Assembly (NCBI RefSeq): GCF_000377785.1
Contig: NZ_KB898726.1
Coordinates: 275,801-339,800, forward strand
Reading direction: 5' to 3'
DNA: 64,000 nucleotides
DNA from: Thioalkalivibrio sp. ALJ24
Lineage (GTDB): Bacteria; Pseudomonadota; Gammaproteobacteria; Ectothiorhodospirales; Ectothiorhodospiraceae
Below the pieces are notes generated by a model. It ran no database searches and was not told the DNA's origin. It saw nothing but the letters and a program-made list of their open reading frames with translations. Shown one piece after another: positions 2,488-28,740 of the stretch. The position numbers were made by a program, and so were the translations under genes. How positions within the stretch are numbered: position 1 is the first letter of the stretch; each line of letters starts with the position of its first letter.

Positions 2488-2501
2488 TGCGGTGTCCTCG
2501 G

Positions 2502-4521: not shown

Positions 4522-4943
4522 CCCCGAGACTCCACCCGAGCGGCGGCGTCATCGATCCAGTCGATCACGCGCTCCACGCGTTCGACGTCGTCCGGATCCA
4601 GCAGGCCGTCGCCGATGCGGGATTCCAGCTCGGCACGCAGGGCGCCCAGCAGTTCTGCCAGCAGGGTGGCGTCGGCGAGGTCGAGGTCATCCCAGGGGAT
4701 TGCATCCTCGACTGCCTGCGCCAGGGCCTCCAGCGTGGTCTCCCCGGTGGCGACCGGGCGGATTTCCACCAGCACGTGGCGGGCGCGTTCCGCGCGGAGG
4801 CTGTCGTCCCCCAGGTAGCGCAGGGTCGCGTACTGCACGGCGGCGCGGGCACCGCCGCCCATGCGCTCGAGCGTGGCGCAGGCGCTCAGGCCCGCGGCCG
4901 CAGCCGAGGCCACAGCGGTGGCGAGAAAGCTTCGGCGGTTCAT
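4518..4943 (-). CDS. Phage lipoprotein with Tat-like signal
   Basis: A 141-residue protein beginning MNRRSFLATAVASAAAAGLSAC: an RRSFL twin-arginine-like motif, a hydrophobic alanine core and a lipobox LSAC that places Cys22 at the mature N-terminus. The remainder is acidic and helical. The sequence predicts export and lipid anchoring in the envelope. Placed between the M15 peptidase and DUF1353 genes with ATGA overlaps on both sides, it could serve as a lysis accessory or outer-membrane (spanin-like) component. No spanin partner was recognised, so function is inferred from context only. Confidence 0.62.
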   Translation of the reverse strand: MNRRSFLATAVASAAAAGLSACATLERMGGGARAAVQYATLRYLGDDSLRAERARHVLVEIRPVATGETTLEALAQAVEDAIPWDDLDLADATLLAELLGALRAELESRIGDGLLDPDDVERVERVIDWIDDAAARVESRG

Positions 4944-5844: not shown

Positions 5845-6870
5845 TCACCGCACCGTGACGCACATGGAGTGATTGACGCGGGTCGGCACCACCAGGGGCG
5901 CGGACTGCGACATCACGTACCGGACGGCCGGATCCTGTTCGACCCAGGATTTCGGGAAGATCGGCACGGCCTGGTAGCCGGCCGCTTCATCCCGGATGGC
6001 GCCGAACGCCTGCGCGCCCTCGAGCGCCTGACCGGACAGGATCACGGTGTGGCTCGGCAGGATCGGCTTTTCTTCGCCATCGGCCGGGTCGATGTACCAG
6101 TCGGCGTACAGGAAGAAGTTGAAACCGTCGACGGTGCCCATGTAGGTGCCGCCCTGGGCATCCGGGCCGCCCATCGACATGAGCGAGTTGTCGACCCAGC
6201 GCAGGTCGAGGCGCTTCTTGAAGTCCTCGTCCTGATTGAGCTGCTTCCAGGCTTCAACATCCAGGGTGACGTCGACCGGCTTCGCGCCGGAGGCCTGCAG
6301 GGCTTCGAGGGCCCACTTGTTCAGGTCAGCCAGCGGAGACACGCCACTCTCACCCCACCGGTCCTCGCCGGTCAGGGTCTTGGTCAGGCTGCTCTTGCGG
6401 CCGAAGTCGACCACCTGCGTCGGGTAGTCCGCTCCCTGAACAGTGACCTGACCCTTGCGCAACGCCTCAGACGCCATGACCTCCATGCGGCGCCAGACCA
6501 TTTCGTCGTGCTCCATCATGGTCTGCACCATCAGCATCTCGAGACGCTCCATCGGGCTCATGGCCCCGCCAATGGACTCACCGGCCGCGCGCTTCAGAGG
6601 ACGGTTGGGATCCCACGGCGTCTTGGCCTTGATATAGGCGGGCTTGAAGGTCTTGGTGGTATGGCCGCTCGCCTCCACCACCTTGCCGGCCACGACCGGG
6701 GACACGAACGGCGCAAGCCGACGCGTGCGATCGATCACGTCGAAGTGGATTTCCTCGCTGGTTTCGGTCTGCTCGAACGGGAAGAACCGATCCAGGAGGA
6801 AAGTCGACGGGCGCTTCAGGCTTTCCCGAATGCCCATCATGTAGTTTGTGGAAAAGAGCATGTTATCCAT
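5845..6870 (-). CDS. Major capsid protein E
   Basis: A 341-residue protein, exactly the length of lambda gpE, starting MDNMLFSTNYMMGIRESLKR. It has the family motifs LLDRFFPFEQTETSEEIHFD and RRLAPFVSPVVAGKV near the N-terminus, then KPAYIKAKTPWDPNRPL. It forms the HK97-fold shell. The upstream neighbour encodes a D-like decoration protein and, beyond it, the portal and protease genes, completing a lambda-type head module. The C-terminal CVTVR region overlaps no other start. Confidence 0.95.
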   Translation of the reverse strand: MDNMLFSTNYMMGIRESLKRPSTFLLDRFFPFEQTETSEEIHFDVIDRTRRLAPFVSPVVAGKVVEASGHTTKTFKPAYIKAKTPWDPNRPLKRAAGESIGGAMSPMERLEMLMVQTMMEHDEMVWRRMEVMASEALRKGQVTVQGADYPTQVVDFGRKSSLTKTLTGEDRWGESGVSPLADLNKWALEALQASGAKPVDVTLDVEAWKQLNQDEDFKKRLDLRWVDNSLMSMGGPDAQGGTYMGTVDGFNFFLYADWYIDPADGEEKPILPSHTVILSGQALEGAQAFGAIRDEAAGYQAVPIFPKSWVEQDPAVRYVMSQSAPLVVPTRVNHSMCVTVR

Positions 6871-6885
6871 TGGTCAGTCTCCTGA

Positions 6886-7257
6886 TCAGGCGGCCTGGAC
6901 CGGCATGAGGATGATTCCCTTCTCGCGCAGGCCCTCCCGGATGCTCTCCAGGTCGTGACCGTCGCCAAGGGTGAGAGCGGGCTCGGCAAAGTCGCCGCGG
7001 CTGTAGGCGATCGCGGCGGTGTCGCCGCCGGTGGCGTCGACGTCCTGCGCGAGGATCAGGTCCGGCGTCTCGCTGCCGTCGTCAGCCGCAGACTTCGAAA
7101 GCAGGTGTTTGCCGTCTCCGTCCTTGCCGATGACGGCACCGCGCTTGAGTTCCTGCCCGTCCTTCACGGTGATGGAGCGCGCCACCAGAAGGTGGGCATT
7201 GCCGGCGACGAGAATGTCGTTCTCGAAGTCGGAGCTATCGAACATTGCGTGGCTCAT
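6886..7257 (-). CDS. Head decoration protein D
   Basis: A 123-residue protein of the lambda gpD / HDPD family (lambda D is 110). It contains DILVAGNAHLLVARSITVKDG, a glycine-rich stretch and the C-terminal helix LREKGIILMPVQAA. Trimers of this protein clamp the expanded capsid and stabilise packaged DNA. It lies directly before the capsid gene, as in lambda, with 15 bases between them. Confidence 0.88.
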   Translation of the reverse strand: MSHAMFDSSDFENDILVAGNAHLLVARSITVKDGQELKRGAVIGKDGDGKHLLSKSAADDGSETPDLILAQDVDATGGDTAAIAYSRGDFAEPALTLGDGHDLESIREGLREKGIILMPVQAA

Positions 7258-7272
7258 TGGTCGTTCCTCCGG

Positions 7273-7689
7273 TTAGTGGGCCGAGCCCTGGAAACGGGCG
7301 ACGGCGGCCTTGGCCGCGGCGCGTTCGTCCCAGTCGCCGGATTCGGTGTCGGCGCCGATGTCATGGCCGTTGGTGTGGGCCAGGCTCGGCAGACGGCTGG
7401 TTTCGAGCGTGGCCGGCACCGGCGCCGCATCCATCACGCTCTTGGCCACATCGAGGGACAGGCCCTGTTCGATGCAGGTCTTGGCCATGCCGATGTCGCG
7501 GCCTTCGTCCTGGGCATGCGCCAGAATCCCGGCGACGCGGGCCTTCTCTTCCTCGCGGCCCTGTTCCAGGCCGGCGGCCAGACCTTCGGCGTGCGCTTCG
7601 GCGCGGGCGGCTTCGAGGGCTTCGTTCGAGTTGGCGGCATCGGGCTGCTGGGTATCGCCCGCCGCCTTGGTCTTGTCAGTCATGGTCAT
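7273..7689 (-). CDS. Nested scaffold protein, Nu3-like (internal start in the protease gene)
   Basis: Within the protease frame an ATG at 7689 is preceded by AGAGGAC, a good ribosome binding site five to eight bases upstream. The resulting 138-residue protein starts MTMTDKTKAAGDT and consists of the charged helical C-terminal domain (ALEAARAEAHAEGLAAGLEQ). Lambda makes its scaffold Nu3 in exactly this way from inside gene C. The internal site is seen in the sequence. Its use is inferred from lambda biology. Confidence 0.68.
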   Translation of the reverse strand: MTMTDKTKAAGDTQQPDAANSNEALEAARAEAHAEGLAAGLEQGREEEKARVAGILAHAQDEGRDIGMAKTCIEQGLSLDVAKSVMDAAPVPATLETSRLPSLAHTNGHDIGADTESGDWDERAAAKAAVARFQGSAH

Positions 7690-10810: not shown

Positions 10811-11554
10811 ATGAGTTCAGATCTATTTAAGGCCAAACTCGGTCGATCGCTCATAGAGATTCAGCAAAGGTTTCACCAAAAGTCGATTGCTATAGCCGAC
10901 TCTGCCATGATTCTTGTTAGCAGCCATCTATTATCTCTTGACGAGGACGACCTGAGCGATCCAGAGCTGGCAAAGTCGTTTCGCAGCCTAGAAAGCAATT
11001 TAACAAATGCCGGTATGAACATAGAAAACCACTTCGCCGGAATGCTCTTGACGAGTGTTGTTACAGAAGTGGAGACCTATCTCATAGATGTTACCAAGAT
11101 ATTACTCCTATACTATCCACACAAAATTGGCAACAAGCCATTCAAACTCAAAGACGCACTTAATAAGACACGGGACGAGCTGGTTCTAGAGGCGGCTGAG
11201 AAACATCTCCAAAGCTTGATGCATAAAAGCCCAAAGGAGTATCTAAAAGACCTTGCCGAACTAATGTCTATCAACCCAAGATTGGTCGAGGAAAGCTGGC
11301 CATACTTCGTCGAGGCAAAGGCGCGACGAGACTTAGGTGTTCACAACAACTGGAAAGTCAATCCAACTTACAGAAGAAAGGTTGAACAAGTAGGTTTTTC
11401 ACTGAGTGAGACGGACGGTATGTTTCTTTTTGCCGATAATGAATATCTGCTCGATACGATGAACCATTGCAACCGCTTGGTAGCATCAATCGGGGACCAG
11501 CTCCAATCCCAGTATTCGTTACATATACAAGTGGACTCTGGAGATGATTCTTGA
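10811..11554 (+). CDS. HEPN-domain protein, possible RNase toxin or defence moron
   Basis: A 247-residue protein oriented against the late operon. Its C-terminal half has the HEPN signature R-x4-H at Arg173-His178 in RRDLGVHNNWKVNPTY, followed by the Asn and Tyr positions typical of RiboL-PSP/ApeA-like HEPN domains. A helical N-terminal half includes LLTSVVTEVETYLIDV. HEPN proteins are often metal-independent RNases in toxin-antitoxin and abortive-infection systems. No antitoxin gene is adjacent. The low-GC codon use, unlike every neighbour, points to recent acquisition. It may be expressed from the repressed prophage, which would fit a lysogenic conversion gene. No substrate or activity can be read from the sequence. 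Confidence 0.72.
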   Translation: MSSDLFKAKLGRSLIEIQQRFHQKSIAIADSAMILVSSHLLSLDEDDLSDPELAKSFRSLESNLTNAGMNIENHFAGMLLTSVVTEVETYLIDVTKILLLYYPHKIGNKPFKLKDALNKTRDELVLEAAEKHLQSLMHKSPKEYLKDLAELMSINPRLVEESWPYFVEAKARRDLGVHNNWKVNPTYRRKVEQVGFSLSETDGMFLFADNEYLLDTMNHCNRLVASIGDQLQSQYSLHIQVDSGDDS

Positions 11555-11776: not shown

Positions 11777-12091
11777 TTACGAAGGAGTTTTAGCAGAGAG
11801 TGAGGCGTTACGCACCCAGCGCTGAACGGTTCGCCTGGACACACGAAACGTTCGAGATACCTCCTGGATGGATCGACCCTCTTTCAGCATATCGATAGCC
11901 CGTTCGCGCGCGGGTCGACCGCCCTGCGGGATGTAATGCGTGTCTCCTCCAGCGCGCATCTGGACCCGCTCCGAAATGCTGCGCGCCAGGTCCCGAGCCA
12001 TGCGCTGGTCGAGCGGCGAGAACCGCTGGATACAGGTCTGGGCTTCGTGTTCGATGATTTCCAGGAAGTCGTTCTTCTGTTCCATGGTCAT
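11777..12091 (-). CDS. Mor-like helix-turn-helix regulator
   Basis: A 104-residue protein resembling the Mor/C activators of Mu-like phages. Residues 45-60, RAGGDTHYIPQGGRPAR, match the GG..YIP.G element, and the C-terminal part, IQEVSRTFRVSRRTVQRWVR, is a helix-turn-helix. The ATG at 12,091 overlaps the terminase stop (ATGA). Mor-type proteins activate middle or late promoters as dimers with RNA polymerase. Finding one inside a lambda-type head operon is odd. It might control late genes or the island next to it. The C-terminal helix looks more resolvase-like than classical Mor, so the family call is moderate. Confidence 0.62.
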   Translation of the reverse strand: MTMEQKNDFLEIIEHEAQTCIQRFSPLDQRMARDLARSISERVQMRAGGDTHYIPQGGRPARERAIDMLKEGRSIQEVSRTFRVSRRTVQRWVRNASLSAKTPS

Positions 12092-14211
12092 GTCTCGCTG
12101 AAGGGGATCGGGGAGAACGGGTCGGCACGCCTCGGAGATTCAGGCTCATTCTGGGAGTCACGCTCGGCGTTTCTGGAGCGGCGGCTCTCCGCAGCTTCGC
12201 GCAGGGCGTTGGAGTGCAGTTCTCTGGCCCAGGCCGGCGGCCTGTCCCAGTCCAGCCGGTTGCGCTTTCGCGTCAGCATGTGGTCGAGCAGAGCCCTGGT
12301 CATGGCGCACAAGTCCAGTGCCTCGTTCCGCTTTCGCACCTTCTGGTACTTGCCGTTGGCCTGCTTAACCTCGGCCCGCATCTCGTCCCAGAAATCCGCA
12401 CGCAACCAGCTCCCCAGGTGGATCTTTCCCGGTCCCGAATCCTCACGATAGGCGCCGTTCAGAACCGCATCCTTCAGAGGGTTGGGGTTGCAGAGCAGGA
12501 ACCAGACCGTCCGCGATCTGCCGGCCGACTTGTCCGAAGCCTTGGACTCCTTGACCGGCGCCGAACTGGACGAAGATGCACCTTTGTACAGCCAGGCTCT
12601 GCTGCGCAGCGCGTTGGGGAGAGACAGCCACCACGCGTAGGCATTGGCGGTCACCCCATCTTCTCCCCCGGTGTCCACGATGATCTCCGCCACGCGCAGC
12701 TCTTCTCCATCGACCGGTGTGCGGTATGTGGATGAAAGCAGATCCGTCAGAACCTCCCAGTCCTCCGGATACCTCGCGGGGTCGATCTGGGCGCAGCCGG
12801 ATGACCTGGAACCCGGGCGCTTGCTGTCCCGGATGTCTCTGCGGTCGATCACCCACTGCTCATGCTCCGGGGCATGCGCGTGCGCCTGAATGACGAACCG
12901 GGAATCCTGACCGCCCTGGACGTCGACTGCGACGGTCACGAACCGGGCACCCTGGTCGGTTGGGACGATGAACTGCGGGAAATCCTCGGACAGCTCCGCC
13001 AGCTCGGCTTGGCCAGCCTCGCCTCGCAATGACCTCGGAAGATAGGGCTCCGCCTGATCGGTGTTGGTGGTGGTTCGCAGCGTCAGGTCCGAGCCGGACA
13101 ACGCGTACTCGCGCAGCCCCTGGAGATATCGCAGGATGATCGACTCCCAGTTCTGGTAGGCCGCTGCCACGCCACCCAGCCAGTAGCTCGCAATGCTCGA
13201 CTCCACCGCTTCACCCACCATCTCGCCATCCCGGGTCACGCTCATGCCATCCATCACCCAGCGGGCAGTGCGAATATCGTTGAGATGGTGTTTCCACTTC
13301 GCCTCGATCTGGCTGCCGCAGTGCGGACAGCACACGAATGCGTGCTGGCGCGCCATTCGCTTCAGATCGAGGCTGCGCACGGACTCCAGGAGTTCTTCCT
13401 CCGGGGGCAGCGTGGCGAACAGACTCAAGCCCGGGGCGGCCTCGAAATACTCGGAACAGTCCGGGCACTGCCAGTACCAGCGGCGACGGTCCCCCCGGTT
13501 GTAGATGCCGATGATGCCCGACGCCGGCGGACCTTCGTGGGGCGTCCCCGGCTGCCAATGTGGGTCGACGTACTCACGCCCCGGGCTGGACTCCACCATG
13601 CACATACCACGCGACAGGTAGGTCTGCGTGCGCTTCACCCCCAGTCCAAAAGGGGCCCCCTCCCCGTCTACGTTGTCGGGCATGCGGTCGTAGTCGGTCA
13701 GCGCGACGTAGCGGTAATCCGAGGACGCCAGCTGAGTCGCGCTCGGCCAGCCGATCTTGATCCACATGCCGTGGCGGGTCAGCTTGTCGTGAGTGTTGTC
13801 GTCGTGCCCGCGGGTGCTGATCAGGCGGTGAATCTCCGGGCTGTGACGGATCGCCCGGTCTACGCGAATCTTGCTGTACTCGCGCGCCTTCTCCTGGGTC
13901 ATCTGCGTGATCAGCATGTCACCCGGGTCGTTCACGACGGCATGCGCCAGCCATCCGTCCAGCAGACCGAGGGTCTTCCCGGAGCGCGCCGGCCCGACAA
14001 AGCAGACCGCCTCATGCTGCCGGCTGGCGAGCATGTTCATCGGCTCGACCATGTACGGCGTCTCGCTCGCCGACCAAGGTCCGGAATACCCACCCGGCTG
14101 CCTCAGCACCAGCGTGCGCTCCACACCCTCGGCCACGGACACCTTGCGCGGCGGCACGAACGCATGGCTCGCGCCGCGGATCACCGGCCACGGCGAGGCG
14201 TAATCACCCAT
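12088..14211 (-). CDS. Terminase large subunit, GpA family
   Basis: A 707-residue lambda gpA-type packaging ATPase/nuclease (lambda A is 641). Walker A is FVGPARSGKTLGLLDG near residue 72. A zinc-ribbon-like set CPDC...CCPHCGSQ lies near residues 240-300, and the nuclease half has VTVAVDVQGGQDSRFV and IIVDTGGEDG. It cuts concatemers at cos and pumps DNA into the prohead. Its start overlaps the small subunit stop by eight bases. Family knowledge predicts cohesive-end packaging. Confidence 0.95.
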   Translation of the reverse strand: MGDYASPWPVIRGASHAFVPPRKVSVAEGVERTLVLRQPGGYSGPWSASETPYMVEPMNMLASRQHEAVCFVGPARSGKTLGLLDGWLAHAVVNDPGDMLITQMTQEKAREYSKIRVDRAIRHSPEIHRLISTRGHDDNTHDKLTRHGMWIKIGWPSATQLASSDYRYVALTDYDRMPDNVDGEGAPFGLGVKRTQTYLSRGMCMVESSPGREYVDPHWQPGTPHEGPPASGIIGIYNRGDRRRWYWQCPDCSEYFEAAPGLSLFATLPPEEELLESVRSLDLKRMARQHAFVCCPHCGSQIEAKWKHHLNDIRTARWVMDGMSVTRDGEMVGEAVESSIASYWLGGVAAAYQNWESIILRYLQGLREYALSGSDLTLRTTTNTDQAEPYLPRSLRGEAGQAELAELSEDFPQFIVPTDQGARFVTVAVDVQGGQDSRFVIQAHAHAPEHEQWVIDRRDIRDSKRPGSRSSGCAQIDPARYPEDWEVLTDLLSSTYRTPVDGEELRVAEIIVDTGGEDGVTANAYAWWLSLPNALRSRAWLYKGASSSSSAPVKESKASDKSAGRSRTVWFLLCNPNPLKDAVLNGAYREDSGPGKIHLGSWLRADFWDEMRAEVKQANGKYQKVRKRNEALDLCAMTRALLDHMLTRKRNRLDWDRPPAWARELHSNALREAAESRRSRNAERDSQNEPESPRRADPFSPIPFSET

Positions 14212-18842: not shown

Positions 18843-19100
18843 TCAGGCCGACTCCTTCGCACGAACGCCGCCATCGCGCTCTACGGGGGAGAAGATGTCG
18901 GGCCGCAACTCCTCGGCCCGAACCCCCGTAAGAGCCTCCAGTTCACGACAGCGCTTCGCCGGTACACGTCCGGTTTGGATCCACTCCCACACGGACGGCT
19001 GAGACACGCCCATCCGTTTGGCGAGATGGACCTGCGTCGGAGGATCGAGTGACTTCAACGCCCGACGCAGCGCCGCTCGAGTATCGGTATTTCCACTCAT
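18843..19100 (-). CDS. Cro/YdaS-like early repressor
   Basis: An 85-residue protein with a helix-turn-helix, TQVHLAKRMGVSQPSVWEWI, followed by PAKRCRELEALTGVRAEELR, the form of YdaS/Cro-type regulators that favour the lytic side. The ATG at 19,100 is taken rather than the upstream in-frame start because it gives the normal family N-terminus. It is transcribed divergently from cI with 96 bases between start codons, the classic immunity arrangement, and should repress cI from shared operators. Confidence 0.82.
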   Translation of the reverse strand: MSGNTDTRAALRRALKSLDPPTQVHLAKRMGVSQPSVWEWIQTGRVPAKRCRELEALTGVRAEELRPDIFSPVERDGGVRAKESA

Positions 19101-19196
19101 ACGGCGAATAATATCGTCTAAACCTATATCTCGCAACACCGGAAGACCGGCGTGGCCTATGTGACCTGATTAGGGTCTACCTATACACTTGCCGTG
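19101..19196. promoter_or_regulatory. cI/cro divergent promoter-operator region
   Basis: Three CCTAT elements (19,123; 19,156; 19,180) and one inverted TAGG (19,171) lie in 60 bases, including the dyad TAGGGTCTACCTA. Two related strings, TCTAAACCTATA and TCTACCTATA, flank the region. These are candidate CI/Cro operators. TACACT at 19,185-19,190 could be the -10 of the cI promoter, with GTGACC at 19,161-19,166 as a weak -35. That would start transcription at or near the cI ATG. Confidence 0.5.
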
Positions 19197-20123
19197 ATGA
19201 GTACAGAAATCGGACATCGGATACGTAACGCGCGGGCGCGCGCGGGGCTGAGCCAGGTTGAGCTGGCCCGGAAGATGGGCGTCAGCCAAGCTACGGTTGC
19301 CGGCTGGGAAACCGGCAAACACACCCCGCGCTGGCCAAAGGTCGACGGTATATCTCGCATCCTTGGCGTCACCCCCAGCGATCTGATAGGGGGCGGTGGA
19401 GGTAGCAAGAGAGTCCCGAACCGAGACATCGACGGTGTAACGAGTCGGGAGAAGGAGGCATTGCGGGCATTTCTGGAGCAGTTCAACCCAAATGAGGATG
19501 CCTACCTGCAGATCGTCCAACTTGTCGACCAGATAGGGGTATCTTCAAGCCAGCAAACAGCGCTGGACCATCCAGATCATGTTGAAGACATCCTGGACGA
19601 GTACTACCCAGGATGGCGGGACGGGGAATACAGCCAATGCACCCTAGGTGCGGCCGAATCCCAGGCCGCACTGTCGGCGATCCCGACGGTGCAAAACGCG
19701 CGGTGTATCCCTGTGATCGACTACGTAGAAGCTGGCTCCCCGCGCGAGATCGTAGACGCCTACGAGTGCGGCGACGGCCACCGGCACGAGTGGCTCGATC
19801 CGGCATCGGCCGAGGCCCTAGGCCCGCACACCTTCGCCCTGGAGATCCGCGGCCGGTCCATGGAACCCGACTTCCGCGAGAGCGAGATCATCATCGTGGA
19901 CCCGGATGCACCGGTGCGCCCCGGCGACATTGTGGTGGCGAGGGTCAATGGCGACGCTGAGGCCACCGTCAAGAAATACCGAGACCGCGGCCGGGACAGC
20001 CAGGGGCACCCGGTCTATGAATTGGTGCCCCTGAATCCGGACTACGCGACCATCACCATCGACTCCGGCAACCCGGGCTCGCTGATTGGCCCGGTCGTCC
20101 AGCACAAGAGGAACCTCCGATGA
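19197..20123 (+). CDS. CI-type repressor with LexA/S24 autocleavage domain
   Basis: A 308-residue protein. N-terminal helix-turn-helix: IGHRIRNARARAGLSQVELA then KMGVSQATVAGWETG. The C-terminal S24 domain has the catalytic serine in EIRGRSMEPDFRESEIIIVD, the lysine in EATVKKYRD, and a probable cleavage site at the Ala-Gly in VEAGSPREI. It should hold lysogeny and be inactivated by RecA-stimulated self-cleavage after DNA damage. No ribosome binding site precedes the ATG at 19,197, and a possible -10 lies seven bases upstream, so the message may be leaderless as for lambda cI. The linker (residues 70-170) is longer than in lambda. Confidence 0.93.
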   Translation: MSTEIGHRIRNARARAGLSQVELARKMGVSQATVAGWETGKHTPRWPKVDGISRILGVTPSDLIGGGGGSKRVPNRDIDGVTSREKEALRAFLEQFNPNEDAYLQIVQLVDQIGVSSSQQTALDHPDHVEDILDEYYPGWRDGEYSQCTLGAAESQAALSAIPTVQNARCIPVIDYVEAGSPREIVDAYECGDGHRHEWLDPASAEALGPHTFALEIRGRSMEPDFRESEIIIVDPDAPVRPGDIVVARVNGDAEATVKKYRDRGRDSQGHPVYELVPLNPDYATITIDSGNPGSLIGPVVQHKRNLR

Positions 20124-20242
20124 CCAGCTGTCAGGGTTCCCCCTTCCACAGCTGGACCTTCCGAAGAATGCCTCCCTTATGAAGCTCGCCTATGGAACTG
20201 TGTAGGGAGTTATTCCGGCTCTGGTACTTGCCGTCGTTTGCG

Positions 20243-20878
20243 CTAAAACGGCTCGTCGTCTTCAGGCCATATCCGCCGGGAAATGAACAGGCCAACGATA
20301 CGAGCCTGAGGGAAATGCTCTTGCAGGACATGCTGCATCGCTTTGAAGTGAGTGCCCGCAGTCAGCACGTCATCGACGACAGCAATACGGGTTGGCGGAG
20401 GGTCGGCCTGGTCGTGGTCGATGCGGTAAGCACTCACCAACTCGTCGACTGTAGGCCTTTGGGCGGGGCCCCGTAAATGGGCGGGGGCGAACGAGCGGTC
20501 CTGAACCACTAGCTTGCGGCGGTCAATATCGCCGACGGACTCCAGAACCCACCACATGCGGTCGTCATAGTCTGGGTCCGATGGGTTTTTGGATGGCGGG
20601 ACCGGGACGAACGTACCGTCCTGAAGCCACTTTTTCGGCATGCTCTCGCGAAGCATCCTTCCGGCTTTCTGGATAGCTCTGCGTTTGTACTTCCACTCAG
20701 CGGTCCCCCGCTTCTCCGGTCCTTTTTTTAGGTTGAAGATCAGTTGGTTAGTGTCGCTGTAGCTGTAACTTTCTCCTGACGCGTACTCGCGGAGGTAGTA
20801 GCACTCATCGTCATCGCTCAACCGGGCGTGTTCACCCCGTGTAAGCTGATCGATCCGGCTGAAACGTTGGTTACCCAA
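20243..20878 (-). CDS. Phosphoribosyltransferase-like protein, ShosT-like
   Basis: A 211-residue protein with the PRPP-binding loop RIAVVDDVLTAGTHFKAM near residue 167 (two acidic residues then TAGT). An upstream VPVPPSKNPSDPDYDDRM segment resembles the ComF type I PRTase fold. No zinc finger of the ComF competence protein is present. Its start overlaps the stop of the DprA-like gene by eight bases, so the two are co-translated. A PRTase-plus-DprA pair is the composition I recall for the ShosTA toxin-antitoxin/anti-phage system, with the PRTase as toxin. Function here is inferred from that resemblance and from its place next to the prophage repressor. Confidence 0.68.
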   Translation of the reverse strand: MGNQRFSRIDQLTRGEHARLSDDDECYYLREYASGESYSYSDTNQLIFNLKKGPEKRGTAEWKYKRRAIQKAGRMLRESMPKKWLQDGTFVPVPPSKNPSDPDYDDRMWWVLESVGDIDRRKLVVQDRSFAPAHLRGPAQRPTVDELVSAYRIDHDQADPPPTRIAVVDDVLTAGTHFKAMQHVLQEHFPQARIVGLFISRRIWPEDDEPF

Positions 20879-21761
20879 GGTGGTCCAAAATGTCTTCGAA
20901 CGTTCTGACCCGGACCGCTCCCTTTCTCTCGAACCGGGACGGCCAGCTTATCTGGCTGTTTTGAAAGCAACTGTCGAGGATAAAGAGCTTGCGACCTTGC
21001 GCTAGGGCCGCACGGGCCTGGGTTAGCGTTCCTGACGTGTCGCTTGCTTCCACGATGACGGTCGCCTCGGTCAGGGCGGACATCGTCACATTGCGCTCCG
21101 GGAAGAAAAAGCGATTCTGCTTCGGTCCCTGACGCTCATAACGCAGCACAGGAACTTGGCTAATCACTAGAAAATCCCTAGCCAGTTGACTCTGTAACTC
21201 CTTGTTTTCTTTCGGATAGTTGTGGCTCAACGGCGTCCCGATGACAGCGACGGTGTTCCCGCCAGCATCGATCGCCGCCTTGTGCGCCTCGGAATCGATG
21301 CCCGCCGCAAGCCCGGATACGACCGTGTAACGGCTCTCGACCAGCTTCTTGGCTAACTTGCGCGCGCGCGCACGGCCTTCATCACTGGGTTTGCGAGCAC
21401 CAACCACTGCTACCGACGGAAGCTCTGTCAGGTCCCACCGGCCCTGGTAGTAGAGAAGTTCGACGGGATGGCTCGCATCGCGCAACTTCTGTGGGTACTC
21501 CCCAGCTTGGTGCACACGAACCCCGAACGACCGCACGCCGGCACGCCAAAGAACTTGCTGAACCTCGTTTGCCCGACGCTCAGCTTCCTCCCTGGAAACC
21601 AATTCAGAGGGAAGCGCACCAGGGTTAGACCGAAACAGATCAGCAACTTTCTTGAAGGTGTTCACGCCATCTTTCAGCCACAGAGCCTCGTACGCCCCCA
21701 TCTCCAACCATGGGGAGACGGCGGGGAAGTCAGCTGTCTCGGCTTCCAAGGGTAGCTGCAT
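20871..21761 (-). CDS. DprA-like DNA-binding protein, ShosA-like
   Basis: A 296-residue protein with the DprA Rossmann motifs: SVAVVGARKPSDEGRAR, YTVVSGLAAGIDSEAHKAA, VIGTPLSHNYPKENKELQ, FFFPERNVTMSALTEATV and EASDTSGTLTQARAALAQG. An N-terminal SAM-like helical part precedes it. The C-terminal winged helix of competence DprA is absent. The ATG at 21,761 is chosen because the longer upstream frame has no protein-like character. Competence DprA loads RecA on single-stranded DNA. Here, paired with a PRTase in the immunity region, it more likely acts as antitoxin or DNA sensor of a ShosTA-like module. Confidence 0.75.
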   Translation of the reverse strand: MQLPLEAETADFPAVSPWLEMGAYEALWLKDGVNTFKKVADLFRSNPGALPSELVSREEAERRANEVQQVLWRAGVRSFGVRVHQAGEYPQKLRDASHPVELLYYQGRWDLTELPSVAVVGARKPSDEGRARARKLAKKLVESRYTVVSGLAAGIDSEAHKAAIDAGGNTVAVIGTPLSHNYPKENKELQSQLARDFLVISQVPVLRYERQGPKQNRFFFPERNVTMSALTEATVIVEASDTSGTLTQARAALAQGRKLFILDSCFQNSQISWPSRFERKGAVRVRTFEDILDHLG

Positions 21762-21877
21762 GAATTGCGGTCCACCAACGTGAATCGTTCGGGATAGTTT
21801 ACCACGCCTATGCAGGCAACCATGCCCGGCCATCACTGGGGACGGAGATATCGGAATGGCCAGGCTGGCACTGCCTC

Positions 21878-22096
21878 TTACTCCCCCATCGTGGCCTCGC
21901 ACCGTCGCTCCAGGGCCATCATCTCAAGCTCATTCCCGCCCGCGTAGTGCTCCAGCACGCACTCATCGACCGTGCTGTAGCTGCCGGCGCGGTCCTCCCA
22001 AACCGCGCCAGCCGCCATCCCCGCCAGAAACGCCCCGCTAACCGCAATCAGCATCGCCCCAAGCGTGACCGTCGTGGGTCGCCGTTCTTCACTCAT
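21878..22096 (-). CDS. Small single-span membrane protein
   Basis: A 72-residue protein: a short basic N-terminus (MSEERRPTTVT), one transmembrane helix (LGAMLIAVSGAFLAGMAAGA), then a conserved-looking periplasmic or cytoplasmic tail VDECVLEHYAGGNELEMMAL with two cysteines. AGAGAGGAAC precedes the ATG. It reads divergently from the early-left operon and toward the DprA-like gene. Similar small proteins with a DCVLEH motif occur in other phages, but no function is known to me. Confidence 0.62.
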   Translation of the reverse strand: MSEERRPTTVTLGAMLIAVSGAFLAGMAAGAVWEDRAGSYSTVDECVLEHYAGGNELEMMALERRCEATMGE

Positions 22097-22201
22097 GCCG
22101 GTTCCTCTCTGAAGTTGCCCTGAATCGTAGCCGCCGAGTTACCTGAGGACTAACCTCGTTTCCGCAATATCAGGGAGTATCGGCACAACCATTTTCTCCT
22201 G

Positions 22202-22231
22202 TTGACGTAGGGTATCGGTTTTTCCTATTAT
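22202..22231 (+). promoter_or_regulatory. Early-left (PL-like) sigma70 promoter with operator half-sites
   Basis: TTGACG (22,202-22,207) and TATTAT (22,226-22,231) with 18 bases between, 30 bases before the first gene of the recombination operon. GTATCGG occurs at 22,177 and 22,212, and its inverse CCGATAC at 22,240, bracketing the -10. CCTAT overlaps the -10, echoing the CCTAT elements of the cI/cro region. Repression by CI is inferred. Confidence 0.75.
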
Positions 22232-22260
22232 CGCCTTTACCGATACGAAAGGGGACGGTC

Positions 22261-22551
22261 ATGTACGACAAGCCCACGCAGACCAACATCCAGCGCGTCG
22301 CAGACGAGGTCGACGCCGACCCCGAGGTGGTCGCGGCGGTGGCTGAAGGCTGCGGTCGCGCCCTGACACGCAGTTTCGGCAGCCAGGAAGTCGCGGCGGA
22401 ATTCCTGAACTCCGGTGCCGAGTGGGCGGTGACGATCGCCCTGCGCGATCACATGGACACCGTTCAACGCATGGCCAACCGGGCACAGCGCGATCCGCTG
22501 CAGTTCTCGTGTCTCGTGCTGGACGTGCTGCGGGACGAGGCTCCGGCATGA
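22261..22551 (+). CDS. First gene of early-left operon, unknown small protein
   Basis: A 96-residue soluble acidic helical protein (ADEVDADPEVVAAVAEGCGR, then AVTIALRDHMDTVQRM). AAGGGGA precedes the ATG, and a strong promoter lies just upstream. Its stop overlaps the next gene as ATGA. Being first in the operon from the PL-like promoter, it occupies the N-antiterminator slot of lambda, but it lacks an arginine-rich RNA-binding motif. No family recognised. Confidence 0.6.
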   Translation: MYDKPTQTNIQRVADEVDADPEVVAAVAEGCGRALTRSFGSQEVAAEFLNSGAEWAVTIALRDHMDTVQRMANRAQRDPLQFSCLVLDVLRDEAPA

Positions 22552-22667
22552 GCTCGCTGGAGACAGCCTTCGTCGCCCTCGCCTACGTGGCACCGGTGTT
22601 CGGCATGTTTGCCGTCCTCGCAGGCCTGGCGGATGTCTTCGAAGCAATCACCAACCGGAGGTCCTGA
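22548..22667 (+). CDS. Tiny membrane protein, 39 residues
   Basis: Starts MSSLETAFVALAYVAPVFGM and continues with a single hydrophobic helix, ending EAITNRRS. The ATG overlaps the previous stop (ATGA), and the stop lies one base before the ERF gene's GTG start codon region with its GGAGG inside this gene. The overlaps argue for real translation. Function unknown; small early membrane proteins of phages can affect host membrane potential or superinfection, which is speculation here. Confidence 0.5.
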   Translation: MSSLETAFVALAYVAPVFGMFAVLAGLADVFEAITNRRS

Positions 22668-22668
22668 C

Positions 22669-23451
22669 GTGACCAGCCACCATGCAGCAGCCGACGTTGC
22701 CACCATCGAACAGGATCAGCCACCGGTGTCCTCGCCGATGCTGGCCTTGGCCGAAAAGGCCGTCCAGTCCGGCCAGGCCGACCAGCTGGAACGCCTGATG
22801 GACATGCACGAACGTTGGGAGACCAACGAAGCCCGCAAGGCGTTCGACCGCGCCATGGCAGCGTTCAAGGCCGACCCGCCTCGGATCGAGAAGAATGCCG
22901 AGGTGGACTTCACCAGCAACAAGGGCCGCACCCACTACCGGCACGCCACCCTGGACCACGTTTCCAACGTGATCAGCCAGGCCATGGCCCCGCACGGGCT
23001 CTCCTTCCGCTGGACCACGGAACAGGAAGGCAACCAGGTCAAGGTGACCTGCATCGTAGCGCACGAGAAAGGTCACCAGGAGCGCGTGACGCTGGCGGGC
23101 CAGCCGGACAACAGCGGGAACAAGAACGGCCTCCAGCAGGTGGGCAGCACGATCACCTACCTGCAGCGGTACACCCTGCTCGCGGCCACCGGCCTCGCCG
23201 CCAGTGACCAGGACGACGACGGCGGCGACGCAGGAACTCCGGTCGAGAAGATCAGCGACGAACAGCTGAGCCAGATCGAGGACATGCTGGAGGCCACGGG
23301 ATCGGACATCGACCGGTTCAAGGACTGGGCCTTCGCCGGCATTCCGAACGGCCGGAGTATCCCCCTCTCCGATCTGCGCGCCGATCAGTTTCCGCGCGCG
23401 ATGGAAATGCTGAAGCACAAGCAGAGCCAGAAGAACGGGGCCTCGCAATGA
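22669..23451 (+). CDS. ERF family single-strand annealing protein
   Basis: A 260-residue recombinase with the ERF pattern: KAFDRAMAAFKADPPRIEKN, then YRHATLDHVSNVISQAMAPH, GLSFRWTTEQEGNQVKVTC and GSTITYLQRYTLLAATGLAA. The GTG start at 22,669 has GGAGG seven bases upstream. A C-terminal part (about residues 190-260) may contact SSB or the exonuclease. With the next gene it forms a two-component recombination system like lambda Bet-Exo or P22 Erf. Both are co-translated through an ATGA-type overlap. Confidence 0.92.
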   Translation: MTSHHAAADVATIEQDQPPVSSPMLALAEKAVQSGQADQLERLMDMHERWETNEARKAFDRAMAAFKADPPRIEKNAEVDFTSNKGRTHYRHATLDHVSNVISQAMAPHGLSFRWTTEQEGNQVKVTCIVAHEKGHQERVTLAGQPDNSGNKNGLQQVGSTITYLQRYTLLAATGLAASDQDDDGGDAGTPVEKISDEQLSQIEDMLEATGSDIDRFKDWAFAGIPNGRSIPLSDLRADQFPRAMEMLKHKQSQKNGASQ

Positions 23452-24107
23452 TCGAGATCCACCGCGACATCGAACAGGGCACTGAGGAGTGGCTGCGCGT
23501 GCGCGCTGGGATCCCCACAGCCTCGCAGTTCGGCGAGCTGATCGACCGCGGGCAAGGGAAAACCCGGCGCACCTACATGCTCAAGCTCGCCGGCGAGATC
23601 CTGACCGGCGAGCCCATGCCCGGGTTCAGCAACCAGCACACACGGCGCGGCCACGAACAGGAAGACGAGGCGCGCGAGACCTACGGGTTCATTCGCGAGG
23701 TAGACGTGGAGCAGGTCGGGTTCATCCGTAACGGAGACAAGGGAGGCTCGCCGGATGGCCTGGTGGGCATTGATGGCGGATGCGAGGTCAAGACCAAGCT
23801 CCCTCACCTTCACCTGGAGGTGCTGCTGGCGGAGGAAGTGCCTGCCGAGCACATGCCCCAGATCGACGGCCTGATCTGGGTCGCGGAGCGGGAGTGGTGG
23901 GACTTCATCAGTTACTGCCGCGGCCTGCCGCCGTTCATCAAGCGCGTGTACCGGGACGAGAAGCGCATCCGGAAGATCTCGCGCGCCATTGACCAGTTCA
24001 ACCAGGAGCTGGCGGACATCGTCGAGAAGGTCCGGCGCGGCAGCGAACCGATGCACGCCCCAGACACCATCCCGGCCCAAGAACCCGATCTCGACACGAT
24101 CTTCTGA
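23448..24107 (+). CDS. YqaJ/lambda-type 5'-3' exonuclease
   Basis: A 219-residue nuclease of the YqaJ family: EQGTEEWLRVRAGIPTASQF, then RRGHEQEDEARETYGF with the catalytic Glu, GGSPDGLVGIDGGCEVKTKL giving the D...ExK core, and HMPQIDGLIWVAEREWWDFI. It degrades the 5' strand of duplex ends and loads the annealing protein. It overlaps the ERF gene by four bases. Confidence 0.94.
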   Translation: MIEIHRDIEQGTEEWLRVRAGIPTASQFGELIDRGQGKTRRTYMLKLAGEILTGEPMPGFSNQHTRRGHEQEDEARETYGFIREVDVEQVGFIRNGDKGGSPDGLVGIDGGCEVKTKLPHLHLEVLLAEEVPAEHMPQIDGLIWVAEREWWDFISYCRGLPPFIKRVYRDEKRIRKISRAIDQFNQELADIVEKVRRGSEPMHAPDTIPAQEPDLDTIF

Positions 24108-26266: not shown

Positions 26267-26465
26267 CCCGTTCGCCCGATACGACGAGACCCTGGGCCGC
26301 GAGATCCAGACGGTGGACACCGACAGCCGCCGGCAGATGGTGGACCGCTTCACCTTGGAGGAATGCCGGGATGCGCTGGAGGTGCCGGGGCTGCAAAAGA
26401 CGGTCCGGGCTCGCGTGGAATCGCGGGTCCGGAAGCTGGAGAAGCAACTGAGGGAGACGAGCTGA
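26259..26465 (+). CDS. Small basic-acidic phage protein
   Basis: A 68-residue helical protein (RRQMVDRFTLEECRDALEVP, then VESRVRKLEKQLRETS). It overlaps the preceding gene by eight bases and its stop overlaps the csrA start (TGATG). Unrecognised family; size and tight packing in the operon support it as a gene. Confidence 0.55.
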   Translation: MNNPFARYDETLGREIQTVDTDSRRQMVDRFTLEECRDALEVPGLQKTVRARVESRVRKLEKQLRETS

Positions 26466-26647
26466 TGTTGGTATTAACCAGGAAGGTAGGTGAGCGGCTG
26501 ATGGTTGGCGAGGACATCGCCGTGGAGGTGCTGGACGTGAACGGGTCGCAGGCCCGGATCGGCGTCACGGCCCCGGAGGACATGCGGATCGACCGCGAGG
26601 AAGTGCGTCGCCAACGCGACCAGGAACAGAAGCAGGAGACGGACTGA
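26465..26647 (+). CDS. csrA: Phage-encoded CsrA homologue
   Basis: A 60-residue protein, [20 protein letters not shown] then [17 protein letters not shown], unmistakably CsrA/RsmA. It keeps the first beta strand (LTRKVGE), the GV.AP turn and the DREEV segment with the RNA-binding arginine. CsrA dimers bind GGA motifs in leader RNAs and control translation and stability. The ATG overlaps the upstream stop (TGATG), and the stop abuts the SSB start, so it is an integral early operon member. A phage copy may retune host carbon storage, motility or biofilm genes, or its own transcripts; the targets are unknown. Confidence 0.95.
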
Positions 26648-27156
26648 TGGCTCGCGGAGTCAACAAGGCGGTCATTCTCGGCAACCTCGGTGCCGACCCC
26701 GAAAAGCGCGAAACGCCCGGCGGGGCGACCGTCACCAACTTCCGCGTGGCCACCACGGAGCAGTGGACCGACAAGCAGAGCGGGGAGCGGCGCGAAAACA
26801 CCGAATGGCACCGGGTCGTGATGTTCGGTCGTCTGGCCGACATCGCCGCGCAGTCTCTGTCCAAGGGCTCCCAGGTGTACATCGAGGGCCGGATCCAGAC
26901 CCGCAAGTGGCAGGGGCAGGACGGTCAGGATCGCTATACCACCGAGATCGTCGCCAGTGACATGCAGCTGGTCGGTGGACGCGGCGGCGGTGGCGCCGGC
27001 GGTGCCGCTGCTGCCGGTGCCGGCTACGGCGGCGGTTACGACCCGGGCCCCGGTGGCGACGGCTTCGGTGGCGGTTCGTCCTCCCCGTCGTCCGGTCCGG
27101 GTGGCTCCTTCGATGACGATGACGTCCCGTTCTCGCCGCTTCGGGGGATCTGGTGA
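26647..27156 (+). CDS. ssb: Single-stranded DNA-binding protein
   Basis: A 169-residue SSB: OB fold residues 1-110 ([20 protein letters not shown], then [20 protein letters not shown] and [20 protein letters not shown]), followed by a glycine-rich linker. The acidic tip DDDDVPF, which normally ends the protein and recruits partners, is here followed by seven extra residues SPLRGIW. It protects single strands in phage recombination and replication. The stop overlaps the next mini-gene as TGATG. Confidence 0.95.
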
Positions 27157-27239: not shown

Positions 27240-27436
27240 AGCTGATCACCGTCGATCAATTCCGCCAGCGGTATTTCGACCAGGAAAGCCAGCCCCAGCG
27301 GCGCACCGTACGCTCTTGGATCGATGCTGGCGAAGTGCCTGGCAAGATCGTGGGCAAGCTGTACTACGTCGACGAGGACGCCTGGCTGGCCGGTACTCAT
27401 GACGCCTTGGTCGAGCGGGTGCTGCAGTCCGCATGA
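27236..27436 (+). CDS. xis: Excisionase (Xis-like)
   Basis: A 66-residue protein with an excisionase-type winged helix: MKLITVDQFRQRYFDQESQP, then RTVRSWIDAGEVPGKIVGKL and YYVDEDAWL. It directly precedes and overlaps the integrase gene by four bases. It should bend attachment-site DNA and steer the integrase toward excision. As the last-but-one gene of the early-left operon it would be made on induction. Confidence 0.85.
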   Translation: MKLITVDQFRQRYFDQESQPQRRTVRSWIDAGEVPGKIVGKLYYVDEDAWLAGTHDALVERVLQSA

Positions 27437-28566
27437 GCCCTCGCCCGCGAAAGAAAGGAAGGCGCGACCTGCCGCCGAACCTGTATACCACGGTCAGCCG
27501 GGGGCGGACGTACTACGTCTATGAGCACCCGCAGACCCGAAAGCGGCACGGCATGGGCGTGGACAAGGCCAAAGCGATACAGGCGGCCAAGATCCTCAAC
27601 TCGCGCCTGATGCCTACAGGCAGGGAAGCCGAGACGATGGCCGCGGCCGTGCTGGCCGGGCCTGACCAGATCGGCACCGTACTCGAGCGTTTTGCAGCCA
27701 CATTGCCCGACCGGCGAAACAGCCAGGGCAACCCTATGGCCGCGAAGACGATCCACGACTACACGAACATGCTGCGCGAGGCGGCCGGGCAGTTCGGCCA
27801 CCTGGACGCGCACGAAGTCACGCGCCGGCACATCGCCGAACACCTGAACCAGTACCCGCCCCGGTCCAGCAACTCGCGCAGGAACGTGCTGCGGCAGGCA
27901 TTCGCGTGGATGGTCGCGGAGGGCCTGCGGGACGACAACCCGGTCGAGGGGACGGCGACGAAGACCGAGGTGGTCCAGCGCCAGCGCCTGACCCTGGACG
28001 AATGGCGCGCCATTCGCGATGCCGGGGAGCCATGGTTCCGCAACGCGCTGGATCTGGCGCTGCAGACCTGCCAGCGCCGGGGTGACCTTGTCGTGATGCG
28101 CTTCGACCATATCGAGGACGGCCACCTGCTGGTGCGGCAGCAGAAAATCGCGGGCAAAGAGGCGGGCAATATCCGCATTGCGATCGGGCCCGAACTACAA
28201 AGGGTAATCGATGCATGCCGTGATGACGTGCTCTCCCCTTTCCTGATCCACCGACGGCCGACCAGGAACCGGCGCGACCACCAGAAGCGAAAGGAACACT
28301 GGACACAGCTGGTGCCCGAACGCCTGAGCCGAGAGTTCGCCCGGGTACGGGATCGACTGGGCATCCGGTCAGAACTCCCCAGCAGGGCCCGGCCGTCCCT
28401 GCACGAAGTGCGCGCCCTGGGCGCAGACCTGTACCGGCAAGCCGGGTGGTCCGAGGACGCCGTGCAGCGGCTTCTAGGTCACTCCAGCCAGGCCATGACC
28501 AAGGTCTACCTGAGCCGTCACCGGGAGACCTGGGTGGATGCGGAGGCCGGTCTGGATGTCGGATGA
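27433..28566 (+). CDS. int: Tyrosine integrase
   Basis: A 377-residue lambda-family integrase. The N-terminal arm-binding part is TTVSRGRTYYVYEHPQTRKR. The core-binding domain is around residues 80-170. The catalytic domain has the first arginine in LQTCQRRGDLVVM, HEVRALGADLY with the His/Arg pair, LLGHSSQAMTKVYLSRH with the second His and the nucleophile Tyr. It reads toward the neighbouring tRNA-Pro, whose 3' end faces it. That is the usual geometry for tRNA integration. Confidence 0.95.
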   Translation: MSPRPRKKGRRDLPPNLYTTVSRGRTYYVYEHPQTRKRHGMGVDKAKAIQAAKILNSRLMPTGREAETMAAAVLAGPDQIGTVLERFAATLPDRRNSQGNPMAAKTIHDYTNMLREAAGQFGHLDAHEVTRRHIAEHLNQYPPRSSNSRRNVLRQAFAWMVAEGLRDDNPVEGTATKTEVVQRQRLTLDEWRAIRDAGEPWFRNALDLALQTCQRRGDLVVMRFDHIEDGHLLVRQQKIAGKEAGNIRIAIGPELQRVIDACRDDVLSPFLIHRRPTRNRRDHQKRKEHWTQLVPERLSREFARVRDRLGIRSELPSRARPSLHEVRALGADLYRQAGWSEDAVQRLLGHSSQAMTKVYLSRHRETWVDAEAGLDVG

Positions 28567-28653: not shown

Positions 28654-28663
28654 CCTAGAAATT

Positions 28664-28740
28664 TGGTCGGGACGGCAGGATTTGAACCTGCGACCCTCTG
28701 CACCCCATGCAGATGCGCTACCAGACTGCGCTACGCCCCG
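28664..28740 (-). tRNA. tRNA-Pro (anticodon GGG)
   Basis: 77 bases. The acceptor CGGGGCG pairs with CGTCCCG (one G-U), discriminator A, CCA encoded. The anticodon stem TCTGC/GCAGA encloses ATGGGGT, giving anticodon GGG for proline CCC codons. The T-arm reads GCAGGTTCAAATCCTGC. The gene is intact at this prophage junction. The downstream ihfA-merR block with tRNA-Pro is a common integration target in gammaproteobacteria. Confidence 0.96.

What the first reader, a model, noticed from the sequence alone, without database searches (positions are those of the whole stretch)
20243..21761. ShosTA-like DprA + phosphoribosyltransferase pair in the prophage immunity region
Two co-translated genes (eight-base overlap) encode a DprA-type protein without the competence winged helix and a PRTase with a full PRPP loop (VVDDVLTAGTH). 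This is the composition I recall for the ShosTA toxin-antitoxin/anti-phage system. It lies just downstream of cI, the slot of lambda rexAB, where lysogenic exclusion genes are expressed. No competence genes are near. A divergent form in a haloalkaliphile-type prophage could extend the family. Seen: both motif sets and the overlap. Known: DprA and PRTase folds. Inferred: defence function.
Basis: partly seen in the sequence, partly recalled or inferred. Interest (0 to 1): 0.78.

Follow-up and report, generated by a model that had tools for sequence, protein, structure and literature searches.

The report
Prophage ShosTA toxin–antitoxin pair, short type
A virus lying dormant in this bacterium's chromosome carries a two-gene pair that matches a known anti-virus toxin–antitoxin system (ShosTA), in a short form that lacks part of the toxin whose structure has been solved; it is a solid but fairly ordinary new example.

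Summary
Window 20243–20878 (−) encodes a 211-aa phosphoribosyltransferase (PRTase) and 20871–21761 (−) a 296-aa DprA-like protein; they overlap by 8 bases. They match PADLOC's ShosT (161 bits) and ShosA (327 bits), well above the host's own ComF-like protein (34) and DprA (198). They lie in a 39.3-kb prophage integrated at tRNA-Pro, bounded by a 48-bp exact repeat. The best reading is a ShosTA-type toxin–antitoxin pair.

Two corrections. The pair is convergent with cI, so it is not expressed with cI as rexAB are. It is also not a lone divergent outlier: 29 further short pairs from phages, plasmids and genomes were aligned, and their DprA-like members form one well-supported group.

The more useful result is anatomical. 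The ShosTA with solved structures has a 424-aa toxin, and the window's toxin matches only its PRTase part (residues 159–365). The window's antitoxin has an N-terminal ~80 residues shared with other short antitoxins but not detected in seven controls. D169, D170 and G175 of the PRPP loop are invariant in 31 of 31 short toxins; the rest of the loop varies. Toxicity, neutralisation and defence were not tested. New member of a known kind; interest moderate to low.

The parts
20243..20878 (-). ShosT-like toxin: single-domain phosphoribosyltransferase, 211 aa, TTG start
   Evidence: PADLOC ShosT 1.1e-47; model pLDDT 85.9; VIA-align Z 12.7 to ShosT 8zvc residues 159-365 and 13.4 to ComF 7p0h
20348..20380 (-). 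PRPP loop VVDDVLTAGTH (residues 167-177); D169, D170, G175 invariant in 31 of 31 short ShosT, other loop positions vary
20871..21761 (-). ShosA-like antitoxin: DprA-type Rossmann protein without a C-terminal winged helix, 296 aa
   Evidence: PADLOC ShosA 2.1e-98; PF02481; tree group
21522..21761 (-). N-terminal ~80 residues of ShosA, shared by short ShosA (14 in the profile, 2 of 2 held out) and not detected in 7 of 7 control proteins (three DprA, long ShosA, three other phage DprA-like)
20871..20878 (-). 8-base overlap of the two genes
19194..20123 (+). cI-like repressor (HTH + Peptidase_S24), convergent with the pair
18843..19139 (-). Cro-like HTH protein (YdaS family above cutoff; P22 Cro below cutoff), divergent from cI
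22609..23451 (+). ERF-family single-strand annealing protein of the prophage
23448..24107 (+). YqaJ-like exonuclease of the prophage
12088..14211 (-). terminase large subunit (GpA) of the prophage
27433..28566 (+). tyrosine integrase (lambda-type arm-binding domain + Phage_integrase)
28662..28709 (.). attR: 48-bp exact repeat overlapping tRNA-Pro (28664-28740, -); the other copy lies outside the window at window coordinate -10601 to -10554 (contig C3 265199-265246), giving a prophage of about 39.3 kb

Best explanation
The pair is a prophage-borne ShosTA-type toxin-antitoxin module of the short subtype. The 211-aa ShosT is a PRTase expected to bind PRPP. Left unchecked, it would disturb the purine/PRPP pool and so damage DNA synthesis. 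The DprA-like ShosA, probably translated just before ShosT from the same message, holds it in check, by direct binding and/or by DNA-bound repair functions. When another phage infects the lysogen and upsets this balance, ShosT is released and the cell stops before that phage can multiply, which benefits the resident prophage and its host's kin. Shown here: gene structure, profile and fold membership, retained key PRPP-loop residues, prophage location and co-divergence of the two genes. Inferred from papers on relatives: PRPP binding, toxicity, neutralisation, purine mechanism and phage defence.
For: PADLOC ShosT 161 bits against 34 for the host's ComF-like protein, and ShosA 327 bits against 198 for the host DprA and 198 for Salmonella DprA. 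NCBIfam dprA: the window protein scores 167.9, below the 191.15 cutoff; the host DprA scores 242.2, above it. The ShosT model (pLDDT 85.9) matches ComF 7p0h (Z 13.4, 160 aligned, 3.1 A) and ShosT 8zvc (Z 12.7, 175 aligned, 3.2 A, chain residues 159-365); the best row that is neither is Z 8.4. Twelve ShosT residues are invariant in 31 of 31 short ShosT, including D169, D170, G175 of the PRPP loop. Toxin and antitoxin distances correlate across 30 pairs (r 0.75; 0 of 2000 permutations as high). In IMG/VR, 19 of 22 ShosA loci have ShosT adjacent; 2 of the other 3 stop at a contig end and 1 is a remnant. Prophage with 48-bp att repeat and integrase. Pair G+C 58.1%, against 65.1% for the prophage part and 67.6% for the rest of the window. 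Papers: a DprA+PRTase pair from P2-like phages protects against T7 and lambda, and DprA homologues are antitoxins of shosTA, syrTA and rqlHI (PMC9122126, passages); a review's account of Pu et al. 2025 on ShosT PRTase/pyrophosphatase activity, DNA duplications and filamentation (PMC12593503, passages).
Against: No experiment on this pair was found or run. The ShosTA with solved structures is the long subtype; which subtype the published phage and toxicity tests used I could not verify. A sequence search of solved structures with the window ShosT found no ShosT, and my short-ShosT profile reaches the long ShosT only around the PRPP loop (4.9 bits; hhalign probability 5%), so PADLOC's joint profile and the fold comparison carry that link. 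Foldseek's TM-scores for those matches are modest (0.46-0.51 by query length). ComF matches the ShosT model as well as ShosT does (tied Z). Beyond D169, D170 and G175 the PRPP loop varies among short ShosT. PADLOC's ShosA profile is not specific (198 bits to housekeeping DprA). The trees neither show nor reject that short and long ShosA form one clade (AU p 0.405). The ShosA model was poor (pLDDT 56), so its fold was not checked.
Confidence: 0.72

Rival explanations
1. A phage DNA-handling module: the DprA-like protein and the ComF-like PRTase work together on single-stranded DNA for the prophage's own recombination (near ERF and YqaJ exonuclease genes), without toxicity.
For: The ShosT model matches ComF 7p0h as well as ShosT. 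H. pylori ComFC binds ssDNA, and ComFC of other species interacts with DprA (PMC9005727, passages). ERF and YqaJ genes start about 0.8 and 1.7 kb away. Beyond three residues the PRPP loop varies among short ShosT.
Against: The pair is on the opposite strand to the recombination genes and has lower G+C. Relatives also sit on plasmids. D169, D170 and G175 of the PRPP loop are invariant in 31 of 31, whereas in ComFC the PRPP site was dispensable for cytoplasmic ssDNA handling. PADLOC ShosT scores 161 against 34 bits for the host's ComF-like protein.
Confidence: 0.12
2. An addiction module that mainly stabilises the prophage, with little or no phage-defence activity.
For: The toxin-antitoxin composition; relatives on plasmids (14 of 72,556 plasmid records have a ShosT relative, 9 of them over at least 80% of the query) and in prophages.
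Against: A DprA+PRTase pair of P2-like phages blocks T7 and lambda (PMC9122126, passages). Not mutually exclusive with defence.
Confidence: 0.12
3. A decayed or silent passenger with no present function.
For: A ShosT relative was found in 1 of 30 genomes of the genus (only the window's own); no sigma-70-like site was found on the - strand upstream of ShosA.
Against: Both frames intact with invariant residues retained; a Shine-Dalgarno-like GGTGGA 9 nt before the ShosA ATG (read); the promoter scan is a crude consensus search.
Confidence: 0.04

Closest known systems
Short-type ShosTA pairs (PADLOC PDLC03961/PDLC03962), e.g. Burkholderia phage Mana, Pseudomonas phage Riah, E. coli plasmid NZ_CP010208.1, Enterobacter mori plasmid NZ_CP071064.1
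   Same: DprA-like gene followed by a ~200-230-aa PRTase in the same order; in these four ShosA is 56-61% and ShosT 35-42% identical to the window's
   Different: Different hosts and replicons; the window pair lies next to cI in convergent orientation
Long, P2-type ShosTA (Peduovirus P24C9; PDLC02997/PDLC03012; PDB 9vzo, 8zva, 8zvb-d, 9w2p/q)
   Same: DprA-like protein followed by a PRTase-bearing protein in a temperate phage; PRTase fold and PRPP loop
   Different: ShosT 424 aa with an N-terminal part (residues 1-158, weak HAD-hydrolase match below Pfam's cutoff) that the window lacks; ShosA N-terminus unrelated by profile; ShosA 34% identical over 171 residues
Phage DprA+PRTase pairs outside the short group (Thermus/Geobacillus phage phiOH2, Gordonia phage Vasanti, Salmonella phage SopEPhi)
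   Same: DprA-like gene beside a PRTase gene
   Different: PRTases of 401, 249 and 193 aa scoring only 23-60 bits to ShosT; in SopEPhi the PRTase gene comes first; DprA-like proteins outside the short group in the tree
RqlHI / PsyrTA
   Same: DprA-homologous antitoxin against a toxic PRTase domain; [quoted passage not shown]
   Different: The toxin is a RecQ-like helicase with a PRTase domain (RqlH; PsyrT profile 689 positions); the window toxin is 211 aa with no helicase
Competence ComFC + DprA
   Same: Same two folds by name; ComF is the joint-best structural match of ShosT
   Different: ShosT lacks ComFC's four-cysteine zinc finger (one Cys in all) and no ComF model appeared among its NCBIfam matches to E 1; ShosA lacks the C-terminal extension; the host has its own ComF-like protein (below NCBIfam's cutoffs) and DprA elsewhere

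Membership tests
ShosTA (broad, as PADLOC-DB 2.0.0 profiles recognise it) | Adjacent DprA-like and PRTase genes in one transcription direction | tested here: met
   same strand, 8-base overlap
ShosTA (broad, as PADLOC-DB 2.0.0 profiles recognise it) | ShosT profile match well above related PRTases | tested here: met
   161 bits against 34 for the host ComF-like protein and 23-60 for three other phage PRTases
ShosTA (broad, as PADLOC-DB 2.0.0 profiles recognise it) | ShosA profile match well above housekeeping DprA | tested here: met
   327 bits against 198 for host DprA and 198 for Salmonella DprA; the profile itself is not specific
ShosTA (broad, as PADLOC-DB 2.0.0 profiles recognise it) | PRTase fold with key PRPP-loop residues | tested here: met
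   D169, D170, G175 present and invariant
ShosTA (broad, as PADLOC-DB 2.0.0 profiles recognise it) | Toxin harmful alone, neutralised by the DprA-like partner, protects against phage | not testable with these tools
   needs expression and plaque assays
ShosTA (broad, as PADLOC-DB 2.0.0 profiles recognise it) | ShosA shares one clade with the solved (long) ShosA to the exclusion of housekeeping DprA | tested here: inconclusive
   AU p 0.405, long branches
Long, P2-type ShosTA (solved structures) | ShosT of about 424 aa with an N-terminal part ahead of the PRTase | tested here: not met
   window ShosT is 211 aa and aligns with residues 159-365 of 8zvc; not filed under this subtype
Competence/housekeeping DprA | NCBIfam dprA equivalog cutoff (TIGR00732, 191.15 bits) | tested here: not met
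   167.9 bits; host DprA 242.2
Competence/housekeeping DprA | C-terminal winged-helix region | tested here: not met
   no such Pfam match; protein ends about 80 columns before host DprA
ComFC | ComF family model match and four-cysteine zinc finger | tested here: not met
   no ComF model among NCBIfam matches to E 1; one cysteine in the protein. The fold match to ComF is strong
PsyrTA / RqlHI | RecQ-like helicase fused to the PRTase | tested here: not met
   211-aa single-domain toxin; only ShosT matched in PADLOC

The most novel reading that the evidence does not exclude
The short pairs are a separate lineage from the solved ShosTA: a stand-alone PRTase toxin with no N-terminal hydrolase-like part, controlled through an N-terminal antitoxin domain of its own, and descended, like ComFC+DprA, from a DNA-uptake partnership that was turned into a killing switch. 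If so, the PRTase domain alone is enough for ShosT killing, and 'ShosTA' covers two or more independent recruitments of the same two folds.
Probability: 0.3. Interest if true: 0.5.

Novelty: new member of a known kind. Interest (0 to 1): 0.32.

Why it matters
It adds a chromosomal prophage example to the ShosTA systems. It also shows that pairs filed as ShosTA come in at least two architectures: the short pairs aligned here, from phages, plasmids and genomes, lack the N-terminal part of the solved toxin and have a different antitoxin N-terminus. That makes a simple question testable: is the PRTase domain alone the toxin, and is the antitoxin's N-terminal domain the part that neutralises it? 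The tied structural match to ComF suggests a link between natural transformation proteins and abortive infection.

Tried and rejected
Considered and rejected: (1) rexAB-like co-expression with cI, because the genes are convergent. (2) Competence DprA: below the dprA cutoff, no C-terminal extension, and the host has its own DprA. (3) PsyrTA/RqlHI: no helicase. (4) Using raw ShosT profile counts as prevalence: one search gave matches in 352 of 369 genomes of the class, and the same search rang in 13 of 14 named control genomes, so these are mostly other PRTases. Only five genomes exceed 80 bits (161.6, 152, 145.2, 118.2, 82.4); the next is 50.9.

Led nowhere: the ShosA structure model (5-row alignment) was poor (pLDDT 56) and I did not search with it. 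A search for a short motif shared by 19100–19200 and 22100–22275 as possible cI operators found no shared word of 8 or more bases. cI relatives in IMG/VR (16 loci, one being this prophage) were fetched but I did not analyse the gene beside cI in them. In one search, matches to cI outside the own genome were all weak (best E 6.6e-7) and were not followed. No PADLOC family was found for 10 further prophage ORFs; I did not scan all ORFs of the prophage. A first script for the viral contigs failed and was rerun. Caspase and other rows appear low in the Foldseek list at low probability and were ignored.

Rows dropped before counts: I left out L078 (own prophage again), L082 (same contig as L004), L096 (taken as the same phage as L006: equal record length and match position), and L083, L093, L099, which lack a readable ShosT. 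That leaves 31 ShosT and 30 ShosA. The tree leaves out three long-branch rows. Longest-ORF starts were used for many relatives, so their N-termini and overlaps are approximate. Of the 5 phage records, two are the same phage (Mana).

Recalled, from no call: the lambda gene order, the rule that HAD enzymes need an N-terminal Asp nucleophile, and that Millman et al. 2022 tested a ShosTA. Pu et al. 2025, Millman et al. 2022 and the 2012 paper on toxic genes were not held. Searches of the held library showed no paper describing the short and long architectures in what I saw (listings, starts of abstracts, and passages of five papers), so I make no claim that this is unpublished.

Full report
What is there. 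On the − strand, 20871–21761 encodes a 296-aa DprA-like protein and 20243–20878 a 211-aa phosphoribosyltransferase; the two overlap by 8 bases. The ATG at 21761 is preceded by GGTGGA at a spacing of 9 nt (read). The PRTase starts with TTG at nearly the same place as several relatives (by eye). Pfam sees the DprA Rossmann domain (PF02481, residues 81–285) and reports nothing to E 1 in the PRTase. PADLOC recognises both: ShosT 1.1e-47 and ShosA 2.1e-98.

Controls for the profile hits. PADLOC's ShosA profile also scores the host's own DprA at 197.7 bits and Salmonella DprA at 197.7, against 327.3 for the window. Its ShosT profile scores the host's ComF-like protein at 34.0, against 161 for the window. 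NCBIfam's dprA model puts the window protein below its cutoff (167.9 of 191.15) and the host DprA above it (242.2). Results against: among solved structures the window ShosA is closer to pneumococcal DprA (110.5 bits) than to the solved ShosA 9vzo (77.2), and the window ShosT finds no ShosT by sequence. The next paragraph explains both.

Two architectures. Peduovirus P24C9, a P2-like phage, carries a 349-aa ShosA and a 424-aa ShosT near its genome end. These match the solved ShosA (9vzo, 8zva) and ShosT (8zvb–d, 9w2p/q) along nearly their whole length. The N-terminal part of this long ShosT has only a weak HAD-hydrolase match, below Pfam's cutoff (21.7 of 26.4 bits). By eye its first motif (FSIAD) lacks the usual Asp nucleophile, so it may not be active; that motif rule is recalled. 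The window ShosT model (pLDDT 85.9) aligns with residues 159–365 of 8zvc (Z 12.7, 175 aligned, 3.2 Å) and with ComF 7p0h (Z 13.4, 160 aligned, 3.1 Å), which are tied; two other ShosT entries follow (12.2, 9.6), and the best row that is neither is Z 8.4. Foldseek ranks ComF and two ShosT entries first, with modest TM-scores of 0.46–0.51. The window toxin therefore corresponds to the PRTase part of ShosT alone. My own profile of 15 short ShosT reaches the long ShosT only around the PRPP loop (4.9 bits; hhalign probability 5%), so sequence alone hardly links the two. The PADLOC profile that matches both may have been built from both.

The short family. Over these, ShosA is 50–61% and ShosT 32–47% identical to the window's. 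A ShosT relative occurs in 5 of 50,697 phage records (two are the same phage) and 14 of 72,556 plasmid records. In IMG/VR, 22 loci encode a ShosA relative, one being this prophage. ShosT is adjacent in 19 of 22, two of the other three stop at a contig end, and one is a truncated remnant. In 18 of the 19 the genes run A then T on one strand; in one (L081) they are tail to tail. Within the genus a ShosT relative is in 1 of 30 genomes, the window's own.

Conservation. Over 31 short ShosT, twelve residues are invariant: N44, K65, P92, P94, S96, D105, R107, D169, D170, G175, G196, F198. D169, D170 and G175 are in the PRPP loop; the loop's other positions vary, for example the threonines before the glycine are missing in several relatives. 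By eye, P92–R107 corresponds to the PPi-loop stretch of ComF. Mean pairwise identity is 36% for ShosT and 54% for ShosA, and their distances correlate over 30 pairs (r 0.75; none of 2000 permutations as high, the highest 0.22). Co-divergence is expected for a unit that travels together and does not by itself prove interaction. A profile of the N-terminal ~80 residues of 14 short ShosA scores two held-out short ShosA at 100 and 63 bits and seven controls (three DprA, long ShosA, three other phage DprA-like proteins) at under 2 bits or not at all. In the trees the 32 short ShosA rows stand on one side of a branch (100/99 of 40 rows; 98/93 of 37 rows). Whether the long ShosA joins them is open (AU p 0.405).

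Setting. The pair lies in a prophage with integrase, terminase, ERF, YqaJ, Cro-like and cI-like genes, bounded by a 48-bp exact repeat. One copy overlaps tRNA-Pro at 28662–28709, the other is outside the window at contig C3 265199–265246, giving about 39.3 kb. IMG/VR holds a 38,439-bp viral contig with the identical pair and cI. Pair G+C is 58.1%, against 65.1% in the prophage part and 67.6% in the rest of the window; 19 of 272 overlapping windows of this size in the prophage part are as low or lower, its own included. The pair is convergent with cI, and no terminator-like site was found in 19000–22600. The genome has its own DprA and a ComF-like protein on another contig; the latter is below NCBIfam's cutoffs.

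Mechanism. From papers on relatives: P2-phage DprA+PRTase protects against T7 and lambda, and DprA homologues are antitoxins (PMC9122126, passages). A review reports that Pu et al. 2025 found ShosT to act as PRTase and pyrophosphatase, upsetting purine pools and causing DNA duplications, filamentation and death, with ShosA binding DNA and T7 Gp0.7 as trigger (PMC12593503, passages; the paper itself was not held). [quoted passage not shown] A Pf phage of Pseudomonas aeruginosa also carries ShosTA, but its effect could not be told from that of Kiwa on the same phage (PMC11878078, passages). The window pair keeps the PRTase and key loop residues, so the same mode is the best guess. Whether a toxin without the N-terminal part has all the reported activities is unknown.

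Verdict. It is a new member of a known kind, with a worthwhile architectural distinction. Function remains inferred.

Noticed in passing
L081 (IMGVR_UViG_3300005534_000378) 5890-6885 (+) and 6882-7526 (-): A short ShosTA pair near an integrase-like ORF (4104-5240, by eye) with the toxin gene inverted, tail to tail with the antitoxin and overlapping by 4 bases; both frames intact. Either an unusual arrangement that uncouples the two genes or an assembly artefact.
   Followed up: partly
window 26462-26647 (+): The prophage encodes a CsrA-like RNA-binding regulator (phrog CsrA-like 3e-21; 72.2 bits, just under NCBIfam's cutoff of 73), beside an SSB-like gene (26647-27156, read by eye, not scanned).
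   Followed up: partly
window 10811-11554 (+): A 247-aa ORF on the opposite strand to the 12088-14211 terminase gene, with no match in PADLOC or PHROGs; possibly another accessory gene.
   Followed up: partly
window 21878-22096 (-): A 72-aa ORF with a hydrophobic stretch (by eye) directly upstream of ShosA on the same strand, with no match in Pfam, PADLOC or PHROGs.
   Followed up: partly
L104 (Salmonella phage SopEPhi stretch) 1699-3247; L100 (phiOH2) 976-3442; L101 (Gordonia phage Vasanti) 1225-2912: Other phage DprA+PRTase pairs outside the short ShosA group; in SopEPhi the PRTase gene comes first (60 bits to ShosT). They hint at several recruitments of the same two folds.
   Followed up: partly
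L099 5917-6321 (+): A truncated ShosA remnant (residues 2-97 only) beside an acyltransferase-like gene (by eye), with no ShosT match: a decayed copy.
   Followed up: yes
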